A DNA stretch of 16,380 bases, taken from the NCBI GenBank assembly GCA_016200385.1, contig JACQEV010000344.1, positions 1 through 16,380 on the forward strand. The letters run 5' to 3'. Origin of the DNA: Candidatus Methylomirabilota bacterium. Lineage in GTDB: Bacteria; Methylomirabilota; Methylomirabilia; Methylomirabilales; Methylomirabilaceae. Position numbers and translations under genes: made by a program. Position 1 is the first letter of the stretch. The number at the start of each line of letters is the position of its first letter. The notes beneath the pieces are model-generated. The model was not told the DNA's origin and ran no database searches. It worked only from the letters and a program-made list of their open reading frames with translations. Positions 450 through 16,378 of this stretch are shown piece after piece.

Positions 450-689
450 ATGCCAACTCCAGAGGAATTCAAGGATGAGGAGCGTCGCCTACGGCAGCTC
501 CAACTCGTGGTTGGTCTGACGATGAGCGTGATCAGCCAGACCACGCTCTCGCTGGAAGAGGCGTCCCGGATGGTGGCCGGCGTGAGGCGGTTAGCGCTGA
601 AACTCTTTCCCGGGAAAGAGCTGGCCTTCGATCTGATCTATCAGCCCCGCTTCCGCAGGCTTCTTGCCGAGCGGTTCAACCTCCATTGA
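450..689 (+). CDS. Small conserved-type hypothetical protein (79 aa)
   Basis: Function not recognised. The 79-residue product is soluble and predicted helical: an acidic/basic N-terminus (PEEFKDEERRLRQLQ), a mildly hydrophobic middle (LVVGLTMSVISQTTLSLEEA), and a C-terminal stretch RRLALKLFPGKELAFDLIYQ ending in PRFRRLLAERF. I see no signal peptide or cysteine cluster. A GTG at 447 is in frame, but the ATG at 450 is preferred because GAGGAG at 439-444 then sits 5 bases upstream. The gene ends in CATTGA, and a TTG in the nfo frame overlaps this stop, so it may be cotranscribed with nfo. The ribosome binding site and protein-like composition make it a likely real gene. Confidence 0.7.
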   Translation: MPTPEEFKDEERRLRQLQLVVGLTMSVISQTTLSLEEASRMVAGVRRLALKLFPGKELAFDLIYQPRFRRLLAERFNLH

Positions 690-718
690 GACGTTGCCCT
701 CCTTCAACCATCCAACCG

Positions 719-1630
719 ATGAACGCACACCAGCGGCGGCGGAGAGATGGATCGGATCTGCTCCTAGGTGCCCACATGTCGATCGCAGGAGGGGTGAACC
801 TGGCGCCATTGAGAGGACGGCAGGTCGGCTGTCGGACGATTCAGCTCTTTACGAAAAGCAGCAACCAGTGGCGCGCCAAGCCATTGCCGCCGGAGGAGAT
901 CGAGCGATTTCGCGCAAATCTTCAGACCACCGGAATCGCCCCGGCCGCCGCCCACGATTCGTATTTGATCAATCTGGCCTCGACCGACCCGGCCTTACAT
1001 CACAAGTCGATGGCAGCCTTCCTCGAGGAGCTGGAGCGGGCCGAGGCGCTTGGCATTCCCTACCTCGTCGCCCATCCCGGAGCCCACATGGGGGCCGGTG
1101 AGGAAGCAGGGTTACGACAGGTGGCGATCAGTATTCGGGAGCTCTTGAAGCGGACGAGGGGCTATCAGGTGCAGGCGGTCCTCGAGACCACCGCTGGCCA
1201 GGGGACGAGTCTGGGGCACCGGTTTGAGCAGATCGCTGCCATCCTGGACCAGATCGGCCTTCCGGAGCGGACGGGAGTCTGCCTTGACACCTGCCACGTC
1301 TTTGCTGCTGGTTATGACATCCGGACTCCGGACGGCTATGCCGGCGTCATCCGCGAGTTCGATCGGATCGTTGGGATCGCTCACCTCAAGGTCATTCACC
1401 TCAACGACAGCAAGAGGGGGCTGGGGTGTCGGGTGGACCGGCACGAGCACATCGGCAAGGGAGCGATCGGGCTCGAGGCCTTCCGCTGCCTGGTGACCGA
1501 CCCCTGTCTGCGGGGACTGCCGATGATTATCGAAACCCCGAAAGACAACGACTTCGTATCGGCCGACAGCCGAAATCTGAGGACACTGCGACGCCTGGCG
1601 CACATAAGGCCCGGCTCACCCGCCTGCTGA
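719..1630 (+). CDS. nfo: Endonuclease IV (AP endonuclease)
   Basis: Zinc-dependent AP endonuclease of the TIM-barrel Nfo/APN1 family. It nicks DNA 5' to abasic sites in base excision repair and removes blocking 3' groups. All nine metal ligands known from E. coli Nfo can be placed in a 303-aa reading: H79, H119, E156, D190, H193, H227, D240, H242 and E272, at a near-constant offset of 10-11 residues. Visible motifs are GAHMSIAGG at the N-terminus, HDSYLINLAS, LETTAGQG, CLDTCHVFAAGYD, HLNDSK, DRHEHIGKG and IIETPK. The start is uncertain. ATG 719 gives about 11 residues more than E. coli before the GAH motif and lacks a clear Shine-Dalgarno. An in-frame TTG at 686 overlaps the stop of the preceding small gene and would allow coupled translation. 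Function is very secure. Confidence 0.96.
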   Translation: MNAHQRRRRDGSDLLLGAHMSIAGGVNLAPLRGRQVGCRTIQLFTKSSNQWRAKPLPPEEIERFRANLQTTGIAPAAAHDSYLINLASTDPALHHKSMAAFLEELERAEALGIPYLVAHPGAHMGAGEEAGLRQVAISIRELLKRTRGYQVQAVLETTAGQGTSLGHRFEQIAAILDQIGLPERTGVCLDTCHVFAAGYDIRTPDGYAGVIREFDRIVGIAHLKVIHLNDSKRGLGCRVDRHEHIGKGAIGLEAFRCLVTDPCLRGLPMIIETPKDNDFVSADSRNLRTLRRLAHIRPGSPAC

Positions 1631-1685
1631 GTCGTGACCTTGCCGGACTGAACTAATACAAACGACAATTTTAAAGTTACATCGG

Positions 1686-1788
1686 GCGGGTGGCCGGGGC
1701 GGGGCGCCCCATCCGCCCGCAACGGAAGGGCCCCACTGGGAGATGGGTGGAGTGAGGACGGATGGGGCTGCCGAAGGACAGAACCCGC
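1686..1788 (+). repeat. Structured dispersed repeat, copy 1 (candidate ncRNA or small mobile element)
   Basis: This element recurs at 16268-16378 in the same orientation. An outer 6-bp stem (1686-1691 with 1783-1788) encloses a perfect 10-bp stem (1706-1715 GCCCCATCCG with 1759-1768 CGGATGGGGC). That stem encloses a 43-nt core at 1716-1758, identical to the other copy at 40 of 43 positions. The inner stem differs between copies at paired positions: A1711-T1763 and T1712-A1762 here correspond to C-G and G-C in copy 2. Small internal hairpins are possible (CCG/CGG at 1717-1725; CCAC/GTGG at 1733-1750). It lies between two convergent genes, so it is unlikely to be a leader of either. No known family is assigned. 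Confidence 0.75.
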
Positions 1789-1883
1789 GCCTTTGCAACA
1801 AGATTAAAGACGTTTGTGTTAGTACCGTTCCACCTCATTATGGCGACTGTGCTGTTCCGCACGGTCGGGACCATTGCCGCCTC

Positions 1884-1912
1884 GTAGGGGCGACCCGCCG
1901 GGTCTCCCCTAC
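1884..1912. repeat. GTAGGGG...CCCCTAC hairpin between convergent genes
   Basis: GTAGGGG (1884-1890) pairs perfectly with CCCCTAC (1906-1912). After one C/T mismatch, GACCC (1892-1896) pairs with GGGTC (1900-1904) around a 3-base loop. It lies 11 bases beyond the 3' end of the eIF-2B-like gene and could act as a transcription terminator or mRNA end, though no T-run follows on either strand. Its GTAGGGGC start and CTAC end match the 53-bp elements at 7437 and 8204, so it may be a short relative of that family. Confidence 0.6.
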
Positions 1913-1923
1913 CATTCGGCGCA

Positions 1924-2859
1924 TCATGCTGGAACGGCACTCGCGACCTCCTCCGCCAACCGAGCCAGCGTCGCCGAAACTGGCGCTTTCCGGAACCCCG
2001 ATCGGAGTCTCCGTCGCGACCAGAGGCCTGCTTCAGTGATGACTCCGGTCACCATCTCAAGCGGTGTAAATTCGGAATATCGATTGCGTACCTGCAGCGT
2101 GGGGTGTCGTGCTTCCCACACCTCCTCGGGCGGGCGGTCGGCGATGCGAAGGAGCGGTACCAAAGATGGCGGAAGGAGTTTGTCCAGCAAGGCAGCGATG
2201 TAAAAAGGCCGCTCCATCGCCTTGGCCGCGAGGGACAGCGGATAGGTCCCGATCTTGTTGATCGCCCCATCCTCAACCACCGCGTCCGCGCCAACCAACA
2301 CGAGATCGGCCTCACGCACAAGACCCGGCAGAGCGGCATCCACGCACAGGTGGACCGGGGCGGACGCTGCTGCGAGAGCCTCGGCCAGCCGGACCCCCTC
2401 CAGCGCCGGCCTACCCTCCGAGCAGAGGATGCGGATCCCTTTTCCTGCCTCGTGGGCGGACAGGAGGGCCCGAAGGACAGTCGAGCTGTAGGAGTGCACG
2501 AGGACCGAGCTCCCTTCGGGCAGCCGATCCGAACAGGCTTCTGCGAGCCGATCCAGACGCAGCTCGGTCTCAAGACTCATCTGTTCCAACTCTGCCGCGA
2601 GGGCTTTGCGGACCGCATCAGCCTCGCTCACCCGTTCCAGCTCCAACCAGAGATGATTCAGGAGGGTAATGATCGGCGCCATGGCGGGCTTCGCATCCAC
2701 GATGCGCCGGGTGAGCGAAAGCAGGCGTTCCGCACACCCCTCGCCGGCCTTTTCCTCTCGGAGGTACCGGGACAGGAGCGAGGAAGCAAGGCGGGTTTGC
2801 TCCTGAGCTCCCGATGTCCTGTCACGGACCAACTGGTCAAGCAATAGCTCCCACGTCAT
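1924..2859 (-). CDS. eIF-2B alpha/beta/delta-like family protein (MtnA / ribose-1,5-bisphosphate isomerase fold)
   Basis: A 311-aa protein of the IF-2B superfamily: a helical N-terminal half (about residues 1-110) followed by the Rossmann-like half. Family motifs are VLVHSYSSTVLRALL (119-133), CSEGRPALEG (146-155), VDAALPGLVREADLVLVGAD (173-192) and the hallmark NKIGTYPLSLAAK (201-213). Members include methylthioribose-1-phosphate isomerase, archaeal ribose-1,5-bisphosphate isomerase and eIF2B regulatory subunits. The Asp of the GAD motif (D192) is kept. The position of the catalytic Cys in the isomerases (a T-H-C-like motif) reads H122-S123 here, so isomerase activity is doubtful and the substrate is unknown. 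The start at 2859 is chosen because GGAGG lies 7 bases upstream; longer in-frame starts have no such site. It is monocistronic, divergent from ftsE and convergent with nfo. Confidence 0.82.
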   Translation of the reverse strand: MTWELLLDQLVRDRTSGAQEQTRLASSLLSRYLREEKAGEGCAERLLSLTRRIVDAKPAMAPIITLLNHLWLELERVSEADAVRKALAAELEQMSLETELRLDRLAEACSDRLPEGSSVLVHSYSSTVLRALLSAHEAGKGIRILCSEGRPALEGVRLAEALAAASAPVHLCVDAALPGLVREADLVLVGADAVVEDGAINKIGTYPLSLAAKAMERPFYIAALLDKLLPPSLVPLLRIADRPPEEVWEARHPTLQVRNRYSEFTPLEMVTGVITEAGLWSRRRLRSGFRKAPVSATLARLAEEVASAVPA

Positions 2860-3131
2860 CGACGATCCTCCAATAGTGTGCCCGGGCTGGGCCATCATAT
2901 GGAAGGCGGACCAGCAGCGCAAGGAAATTCTCCGTGACGGGGCAGTCGCCGCATCGACAGGCTGAATCCGGGTAGGTGCTGGCCGAAGATGCTCGGAGAT
3001 TTTTGGTTGCAATCACCATGAAAAAGAGGTAACGTTGGACCGCATGCGCCAGCAGGGAAAGCTTCGGGCCCGTGTCCATGTCCCCGGGGCGGATGGGATC
3101 GAAGAAGGAGGTCTACCAGGGCTGCCTTGCC
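2860..3131. promoter_or_regulatory. Divergent intergenic region between the eIF-2B-like gene and ftsE
   Basis: These 272 bases must hold the promoters of two divergent transcripts. Toward ftsE a weak candidate is TTGCAA (3007-3012), 17 bases, then TAACGT (3030-3035): correct spacing but poor -10 match. A perfect Shine-Dalgarno AAGGAGGT lies at 3105-3112, 19 bases before the ftsE ATG chosen here. That is too far to serve it, and no in-frame start codon sits at proper distance, which is unexplained. The in-frame ATGs at 3072 and 3093 lie upstream of this site and would add residues not typical of FtsE. Toward the left, only the GGAGG of the eIF-2B-like gene is clear. Confidence 0.3.
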
Positions 3132-16220: not shown

Positions 16221-16267
16221 AGTCAACCCCGATCCGAAAATAACGGGACTCGGAATATCTGGCTACA

Positions 16268-16378
16268 CAGCGGGTGGCGCGGTGAGCGGGCGCCCCCGCC
16301 GCCCGCAGCGGAAGGGCCCCACTGGGGGATGGGTGGAGCGAGGACGACGGGGGCTGATCACCGCGACAGGACCCGCTG
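16268..16378 (+). repeat. Structured dispersed repeat, copy 2 (candidate ncRNA or small mobile element)
   Basis: Partner of the element at 1686-1788. Stem 1 is 8 bp: 16268-16275 (CAGCGGGT) with 16371-16378 (ACCCGCTG). Stem 2 is 8 bp: 16278-16285 (CGCGGTGA) with 16358-16365 (TCACCGCG). Stem 3 has 9 of 10 pairs: 16292-16301 (GCCCCCGCCG) with 16345-16354 (CGACGGGGGC). The 43-nt core at 16302-16344 differs from copy 1 at only three positions. Stem 2 is much weaker in copy 1. The element ends 2 bases before the window edge, so what follows it is unknown. It lies upstream of, and pointing away from, the lipoprotein-pal unit. Confidence 0.75.

What the first reader, a model, noticed from the sequence alone, without database searches (positions are those of the whole stretch)
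1686..1788. A covarying, repeated structured element (copies at 1686-1788 and 16268-16378)
Seen directly: two copies 14.6 kb apart share a 43-nt core with only three differences, while the enclosing stem has changed sequence and kept pairing. A1711-T1763 becomes C16297-G16349, and T1712-A1762 becomes G16298-C16348. The outer GCGGGT/ACCCGC stem is identical, and both flanking arms are longer by the same 2 nt in copy 2. A conserved core with compensating stems is what a structured RNA family, or a hairpin-recognised small mobile element, looks like. I cannot match it to a known family. Position between convergent gene ends argues against a cis-acting leader, at least for copy 1.
Basis: partly seen in the sequence, partly recalled or inferred. 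Interest (0 to 1): 0.72.

Follow-up and report, generated by a model that had tools for sequence, protein, structure and literature searches.

The report
New mobile structured hairpin element family
The two repeated hairpins are members of an uncatalogued family of short mobile DNA elements whose core folds, on one strand, into a shape kept by compensating mutations in bacteria of several phyla, which points to a working but unexplained RNA or single-stranded DNA.

Summary
In detail: both copies and their paired changes are at the stated coordinates. The host genome, an 81%-complete draft, has 18 matches, copy 1 included, in two subfamilies. On 106 aligned copies, 92.9% of cells pair (shuffled 74.5%), the covariation score is 0.408 (shuffled 0.122), and 26 of 32 pairs change on both sides. 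G-U beats A-C 53 to 12 in six P2 positions, so the window's + strand is probably the folded one. No Rfam family reaches its threshold. The family occurs in 17 of 95 genomes of the window's class, 36 of 98 of the Nitrospira class and 8 of 149 of the Saccharicenans phylum, with up to 107 matches per genome. Many copies lie between terminal inverted repeats of five different sequences. The gap holding copy 1 is 293 bp here and 17 bp in a congener. Best reading: a MITE-like non-autonomous element carrying a conserved structured module, probably RNA. Its transposase and the module's partner were not found; 30 Y1 (RAYT-type) transposase loci carry no copy.

The parts
1653..1664 (+). left terminal inverted repeat CTAATACAAACG of the copy 1 element (type A end)
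   Evidence: same 12-mer with up to 1 mismatch at 19 places in the genome, 7 exact, 16 of them on contigs that carry subfamily A copies; reversed-pattern control 2; seen in the aligned copies
1811..1822 (-). right terminal inverted repeat of copy 1 (CTAACACAAACG on the - strand, 1 mismatch)
1686..1788 (+). structured core, copy 1 (subfamily A); the + strand is probably the folded strand
1686..1691 (+). P1 5' arm GCGGGT, followed by GG of the conserved internal loop
1719..1759 (+). conserved terminal domain and second internal loop (GCAACGGAAGGGCCCCACTGGGAGATGGGTGGAGTGAGGAC)
   Evidence: near-invariant between phyla
1778..1788 (+). 3' side of the conserved internal loop (ACAGA here, ACAGG in most other copies) and P1 3' arm ACCCGC
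16224..16241 (+). left terminal inverted repeat of copy 2 (CAACCCCGATCCGAAAAT, type B end); its right partner lies beyond the contig end
   Evidence: both ends visible in sister copies L012, L014, L015, L016
16268..16378 (+). structured core, copy 2 (subfamily B)

Best explanation
Copies 1 and 2 belong to one family of short, non-coding, non-autonomous mobile elements (about 170-200 bp with their ends). The core (mostly 82-150 nt) folds on one strand into a long hairpin: P1; a conserved internal loop (GGGU-GG-C / G-ACAGG-ACCC); a helix P2-P3 of freely changing sequence; a second conserved internal loop (CSCGCAGC / GCGAGSACG); and a terminal domain, usually GKAAGGGnCCCACnGGGGGAUGGGUGGA, that exists in several versions. 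SHOWN: fold, covariation, strand asymmetry, copy number, patchy occurrence, gaps without the element, terminal repeats of five kinds. INFERRED: a transposase acting in trans moves the element by its terminal repeats; the core is transcribed and works as RNA, its two internal loops and terminal domain forming a binding site for a conserved cellular partner that makes the insertion tolerable or useful; some hosts have kept copies, such as the one between nuoA and nuoB of Nitrospira.
For: Covariation: 92.9% of cells paired versus 74.5% shuffled, score 0.408 versus 0.122 and at most 0.058 when slid, 26 of 32 pairs with both-side changes. Strand: G-U 53, A-C 12 in six P2 pairs of 183 usable of 233 distinct copies; G-U exceeds A-C in each of the five groups that have any G-U. 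Loop sequence stays while stems change, from Nitrospira to Aminicenantes to a gammaproteobacterial MAG. Mobility: 18 matches in the window's genome, none in 14 of 14 congeners, a 17-bp gap between the same two genes in congener L297 instead of 293 bp, up to 107 matches in one genome. Terminal repeats: strong inverted repeats in the flanks of 50 of 227 copies versus 2 of 227 with shuffled right flanks (at least three of the 50 merely lengthen P1). Continued selection at one site: five Nitrospira share the nuoA-nuoB insertion with paired changes (C-G to U-A, A-U to G-C with a G-U intermediate, G-C to A-U), one broken P2 pair (L293), and a nearly constant loop.
Against: No transcript data. Folding energy of the two window copies does not favour the + strand (z -0.89 and -3.21 on +, -2.48 and -4.94 on -). 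G-U 14 versus A-C 16 in the outer P1 pairs shows no strand preference. Groups 'win' and 'clo' have neither G-U nor A-C, and group gsl has A-C 2, G-U 0. Copies are related, so counts are not independent events. Most copies (177 of 227) lack a strong terminal inverted repeat, and no autonomous transposon with these ends was recognised. In Nitrospira many copies lie antisense to the genes beside them, so the folded strand is not the genes' message there. Gene conversion could explain the paired changes at nuoA-nuoB.
Confidence: 0.58

Rival explanations
1. The core is a single-stranded DNA hairpin recognised by a recombinase or HUH-type transposase, as in REP/RAYT or IS200/IS605 systems; covariation reflects DNA hairpin recognition on one strand and no RNA is involved.
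For: Strand asymmetry and conserved bulges fit an ssDNA hairpin too. Inverted doublets in G097, 11 of them spaced 47-50 nt and one 214 nt, recall REP dimers. In G099 the + strand lies against the GC skew in 34 of 47 placed copies (p = 0.003).
Against: 30 Y1_Tnp loci (gene plus up to 1.5 kb each side) from 9 of 16 carrier genomes have no R2 match at E up to 1, and the other 7 genomes have no Y1_Tnp match. G097 shows no strand bias (37 of 74). Other recombinase families were not searched. The stems are sequence-free, whereas the loop is constant.
Confidence: 0.27
2. The core is a catalytic or guide RNA (self-splicing as in IStrons, a small ribozyme, or an OMEGA/bridge-type guide) that the mobile element needs.
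For: 35 invariant columns among the first 18 copies, many of them in loops, beside free stems is what a ribozyme or guide scaffold can look like.
Against: No Rfam family reaches its threshold; low-threshold scans of three stretches give only far sub-threshold matches such as microRNA and snoRNA models. A copy inside mutS2 (L082) is in frame and read through without a stop, so splicing is not required there. The elements read are too short to hold an effector gene.
Confidence: 0.08
3. A known kind of cis-regulatory RNA (riboswitch, leader, terminator).
For: Structured, intergenic.
Against: Flanking genes are arranged --:47, +-:44, -+:36, ++:32 relative to the core in 192 distinct copies, with 23 at an edge and 10 inside called ORFs; high copy number; no Rfam match.
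Confidence: 0.03
4. Inert palindromic debris of transposon ends, with pairing only by descent.
For: Some copies are decayed or cut short (L017, L112 and L154, L257).
Against: Paired cells and covariation far above shuffled and slid controls; loop more constant than stems between phyla; compensatory change at an orthologous site.
Confidence: 0.04

Closest known systems
MITEs (miniature inverted-repeat transposable elements) of bacteria
   Same: short, non-coding, terminal inverted repeats, many copies, mostly intergenic, gaps without the element in relatives
   Different: the interior is a covarying conserved structure shared by elements with different ends and across phyla; parent transposase and target duplication not found
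REP/REPIN elements mobilised by RAYT (Y1) transposases
   Same: hairpins, intergenic, in Nitrospira often just after a stop codon, inverted doublets. REP features from passages of PMC3733652; PMC3116915 seen only as a search listing
   Different: mostly 82-150 nt rather than 20-40 bp; stems free to vary; large conserved terminal domain; none of 30 Y1 loci carries a copy
Rickettsial palindromic elements (in-frame insertion is recalled; PMC3733652 passages only mention RPE sequences)
   Same: one copy lies in frame in a protein linker (MutS2)
   Different: nearly all other copies are intergenic; no sequence comparison with RPEs was made
IStrons: group I intron plus insertion sequence (PMC4227781, search listing only)
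   Same: idea of an RNA module joined to a DNA transposon
   Different: core is far smaller, no intron model matches, no transposase ORF in the elements read

Membership tests
MITE | terminal inverted repeats bounding a short element | tested here: met
   copy 1: CTAATACAAACG at 1653 and, with one mismatch, 1811; family-wide strong in 50 of 227 copies, 2 of 227 shuffled, so met for many, not shown for all
MITE | multiple copies and gaps lacking the element in relatives | tested here: met
   18 matches in own genome; 17-bp gap in L297 against 293 bp; nuoA-nuoB gap of 28 nt in L273 against 136-138 nt with the element
MITE | target-site duplication | tested here: inconclusive
   outer flanks listed, read by eye, show no consistent duplication
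MITE | autonomous parent transposon with the same ends | tested here: inconclusive
   type A ends searched in the own genome, type C in four genomes, type D in one; nine stretches read around lone ends showed cores, core variants or other small inserts; no transposase-carrying pair was recognised, but no transposase profile was run on them and the list is capped
REP / RAYT | associated Y1 (RAYT) transposase gene flanked by copies | tested here: not met
   0 of 30 Y1_Tnp loci carry an R2 match at E up to 1
REP / RAYT | 20-40 bp hairpin with unpaired GTAG or CGTC tag | tested here: not met
   size: cores mostly 82-150 nt; definition from passages of PMC3733652. The tag was not searched for, only looked for by eye
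any Rfam 15 family | covariance-model score above gathering threshold | tested here: not met
   window and 8 loci: 0 matches; low-threshold scans of 3 stretches give sub-threshold matches only, best MIR1437 27.1 bits against a threshold of 168 (E 0.0052)
structured RNA family (generic) | covariation beyond controls | tested here: met
structured RNA family (generic) | transcription of the folded strand | not testable with these tools
   no RNA-seq available

The most novel reading that the evidence does not exclude
A new class of structured RNA that travels as a passenger module: the same conserved RNA core has been built into small transposons with five different sets of terminal repeats, has spread across phyla, and has been kept by hosts at fixed sites (nuoA-nuoB of Nitrospira, the MutS2 linker of Rokubacteria), which implies a widely shared cellular partner for the RNA.
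Probability: 0.4. Interest if true: 0.86.

Novelty: new variant of a known kind. Interest (0 to 1): 0.72.

Why it matters
Short palindromic repeats are usually treated as sequence-defined DNA. Here the sequence of the stems is free and the fold is what is kept, across phyla and across different transposon ends. That is strong evidence of a selected single-stranded structure, and suggests an unknown partner present in distant bacteria. The named carrier Nitrospira moscoviensis (complete genome, L121) makes the question testable, and the covariance model describes a family for which Rfam release 15 gave no match.

Tried and rejected
Rfam: no family above threshold; sub-threshold matches (M23, snoRNA, microRNA, CRISPR-repeat models and the like) rejected as chance. 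RAYT/REP: rejected as membership. Viral carriage: the core pattern gave 0 matches in viral contigs. Autonomous transposon: searches with the ends gave small inserts, no transposase was recognised. Replication-strand bias: seen in G099 (34 of 47 against the skew), absent in G097 (37 of 74), where the windows were only about 3-18 kb and so noisy; not used as support. G-quadruplex and CsrA-type GGA binding were considered from the sequence alone and not tested; the GATATGTTCC version of the terminal domain loses part of the G-tracts. Literature: searches on Methylomirabilis + MITE (0 papers), MITE + structured RNA + covariation (1), the core letters (0), Nitrospira + REP + hairpin (20 papers, 10 listed), structured RNA + mobile element + inverted repeat (9), Rokubacteria/Aminicenantes + RNA motif (4) and CGTC-tagged repeats (19,822 papers, 8 listed) listed nothing that describes this element. 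Passages only were read of PMC12306157 and PMC3733652; all other papers were seen as search listings with the start of the abstract.

Full report
WHAT IS IN THE WINDOW. Both copies are present as described: stem hexamers GCGGGT/ACCCGC, a core with three differences, and the two double changes A1711-T1763 to C16297-G16349 and T1712-A1762 to G16298-C16348. The window is one whole contig (C149) of a draft genome of 2.21 Mb in 411 contigs, 81.3% complete. Copy 1 has 18 matches in that genome, itself included, at E 1.6e-55 to 3.7e-11. Eleven form subfamily A (copy 1 and ten places 95-98% identical to it) and seven subfamily B (like copy 2, 81-89% identical to copy 1 over the matched part). Several matches start or end at a contig end, as repeats do.

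THE REPEATED UNIT IS LARGER THAN THE HAIRPIN. In the aligned copies, subfamily A lies between CTAATACAAACG... and ...CGTTTGTATTAG (window 1653-1822) and subfamily B between TAACCCCAATCCGAAA... and ...TTTTCGGATCGGGGTTA (left end at 16224-16241; the right end is beyond the contig). Congener L297 has the same two convergent genes with a 17-bp gap (genes end at 2436 and 2454), where the window has 293 bp holding this element and a second small one. The other congener with a close match, L298, has the two genes further apart, with other sequence between. R1 found no match in 14 of 14 other genomes of the genus.

FAMILY AND FOLD. A DNA search with copy 1 matched 12 of 60 genomes, own included, several of them weakly. 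A first covariance model R1 built from 18 sequences matched 17 of 95 genomes of the class, own included. I gave 78 of those 80 (L098 and L109, cut at contig ends, left out), the window and 20 earlier loci to R1: 106 matches, and 74 of the 78 loci have one (L102, L119, L142 and L148 have none; L142, an actinomycete MAG, and L148, Kitasatospora, look like chance pattern hits). On these 106 rows the stored structure has 92.9% of cells paired (shuffled 74.5, sd 0.5), 557 cells with both-side changes (shuffled 170), 26 of 32 pairs with such changes, and a covariation score of 0.408 (shuffled 0.122; slid 0.026-0.058). The alignment was fitted to the model, which leans towards the structure. In six P2 positions fixed by conserved anchors instead, 971 of 1098 cells are Watson-Crick, 53 G-U, 12 A-C and 62 other.

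ANATOMY. P1, then 5' GG opposite 3' ACAGG, then P2 and P3 of free sequence, then an internal loop CSCGCAGC / GCGAGSACG in which S-S swaps C-G for G-C (69 and 33 rows), then a terminal domain. The commonest version is GKAAGGGnCCCACnGGGGGATGGGTGGA. Others seen are one ending GATATGTTCC, GGAGAAATTCGCCACC..., CCCGGGTCCCTACACCGGGCGGGGTG, a G036 type, and short ones with almost no domain. L257 keeps only P1, the first loop and a P2 hairpin between its terminal repeats.

WHICH STRAND. In the 32 pairs of A2, G-U occurs 146 times and A-C 54 times. In six P2 positions, G-U 53 against A-C 12 over 183 usable of 233 distinct copies (groups nit 12:2, gam 21:3, sac 11:3, ami 6:1, rok 3:1, gsl 0:2, win and clo 0:0). 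Outer P1 gives no asymmetry (14:16). Copies are related, so this is not a count of independent events. Thermodynamic z-scores of the two window copies do not favour +. I read the whole as favouring the window's + strand, as RNA more likely than as DNA.

RANGE. R2 (built from A2) gives 107 matches in the gammaproteobacterial MAG G097, 60 in Saccharicenans G099, 17 in G098, 15 in G100, 9 in G102, 4 in N. moscoviensis G095, 4 in G101 and 1 in G096; 36 of 98 genomes of the Nitrospira class; 8 of 149 genomes of the phylum of G099, of which G098 and G099 themselves are two. Searches used Infernal's stricter filters.

ENDS. With 100-nt flanks, 50 of 227 copies have a strong inverted repeat (score 13 or more) against 2 of 227 with a shuffled right flank: rok 11/24, gam 25/79, ami 4/12, nit 4/31, clo 3/6, sac 2/57, win 1/11, gsl 0/7. 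At least three of these (L155, L074, L062) are lengthened P1 stems rather than separate ends, and the type A ends of the window and L003 score just below the cut (11.7, 12.1). Five end types recur some 8-45 nt from the core on both sides: A CTAATACAAACG; B TAACCCTAATCCGAAA (window genome and Nitrospira, and by eye a Rokubacterium, L049); C TARCCCGGATTATTCATGAACG (Rokubacteria and G097); D CCGGCCGGATTCAT (G097); E AGCATCTCCGTTTCCGTGAT (Aminicenantes, the 'Clostridiales' MAG, Saccharicenans). C and D share a few letters and may be related. No consistent target duplication was seen by eye. No autonomous element was recognised. Y1 transposases are not the partner by proximity: 30 loci, no R2 match at E up to 1.

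CONTEXT. Gene calls were made by a simple codon-usage script, not a standard caller. Of 192 distinct copies, 159 have both neighbours called: -- 47, +- 44, -+ 36, ++ 32; 23 lie at an edge and 10 inside called ORFs. In Nitrospira, 13 of 18 copies with an antisense gene on the 3' side end within -3 to +6 nt of its stop codon. At nuoA-nuoB, 39 of 39 searched Nitrospira genomes have a NuoB match and 30 gave loci. Four of the 30 carry the full element (L266, L292, L293, L295), L269 looks like a remnant; by coordinates G138, not read, has one too. The gap is 136-138 nt with the element, 28 nt in L273, at most 60 nt in 4 of 30, and 23 of 30 gaps fold at -20 kcal/mol or below, most with other hairpins. 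L106 has the element there too. In five genomes (L266, L292, L293, L295, L106), which share the flank CATTCTCG, stems changed in pairs (P1 pair 4 G-C to A-T; P2 pair 3 C-G to T-A; P2 pair 6 A-T, G-C and G-T), with one G-T-type change in P1 (L106) and one broken pair in L293 (G/A), while the terminal part hardly changed. L108 lies after the nuoA of a different gene cluster and is not counted as orthologous. Gene conversion between copies is not excluded. Of ten ORFs that overlap a copy, Pfam names two: in L082 the element occupies residues 691-728 of MutS2, between the MutS_V and Smr domains, in frame, a stretch where homologues have a variable linker (13 chosen of 120 listed); in L099 it precedes a DUF2284 domain.

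INTERPRETATION. Shown: a real family, fold under selection, mobility, several end types. Inferred: movement in trans by a transposase acting on the ends; function as RNA; a shared partner. The main rival is recognition as single-stranded DNA. I rate the structured, mobile family itself as near certain (about 0.95), RNA over DNA at about 2 to 1, and the full statement at 0.58.

NOVELTY. No Rfam 15 match and nothing describing it in the listings, in a library that lacks most subscription journals. As small mobile palindromic elements are a known kind, I file it as a new variant rather than categorically new.

Noticed in passing
window 1823-1940: A second small inverted-repeat element abuts copy 1 (ends TACCGTTCCA / TGGAACGGCAC, inner hairpin GTAGGGGCGACCCGCCGGGTCTCCCCTAC); its right end supplies last codons of the gene 1924-2859 (-). 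GTRCCGTTCC-like letters also adjoin subfamily A copies L002, L003, L006, L007, L008 and (one change) L013.
   Followed up: partly
L082:940-1050 (-), in mutS2 683-3121 (-): An element of 111 nt lies in frame in the MutS2 linker. Four of 13 aligned homologues (P0003, P0006, P0008, P0011) have a linker peptide of the type PQWGxGG / SQWGMGG, resembling the read-through of the terminal domain (EGPHWGMGGART), as if an old insertion had become coding.
   Followed up: partly
L266-L295, nuoA-nuoB gap of Nitrospira: The gap just after the nuoA stop codon carries one of several different hairpins in most of the 30 genomes read (23 of 30 fold at -20 kcal/mol or below). L270, L274, L281, L282, L290 and L291 share another one with GCTCGCCCACCGCGCAC-like letters that may be a distant relative (by eye).
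   Followed up: partly
G097 loci L218, L220, L222, L224, L225, L228, L230, L233-L236: Inverted doublets of cores spaced 47-50 nt; several share one palindromic middle end such as GAATCCGGCCGGATTC.
   Followed up: partly
L263:115, L264:1748, L265:2094 (own genome): Type A-like ends next to a different repeat (CATTGCGAGCGA-like hairpins) instead of the core.
   Followed up: no
G099 loci L344-L379: Core + strand runs against local GC skew in 34 of 47 placed copies (p = 0.003); not seen in G097 (37 of 74).
   Followed up: partly
L110, L150, L139, L091, L361 (Saccharicenans): Cores in direct tandem at about 150 or 290 nt spacing, same orientation.
   Followed up: no
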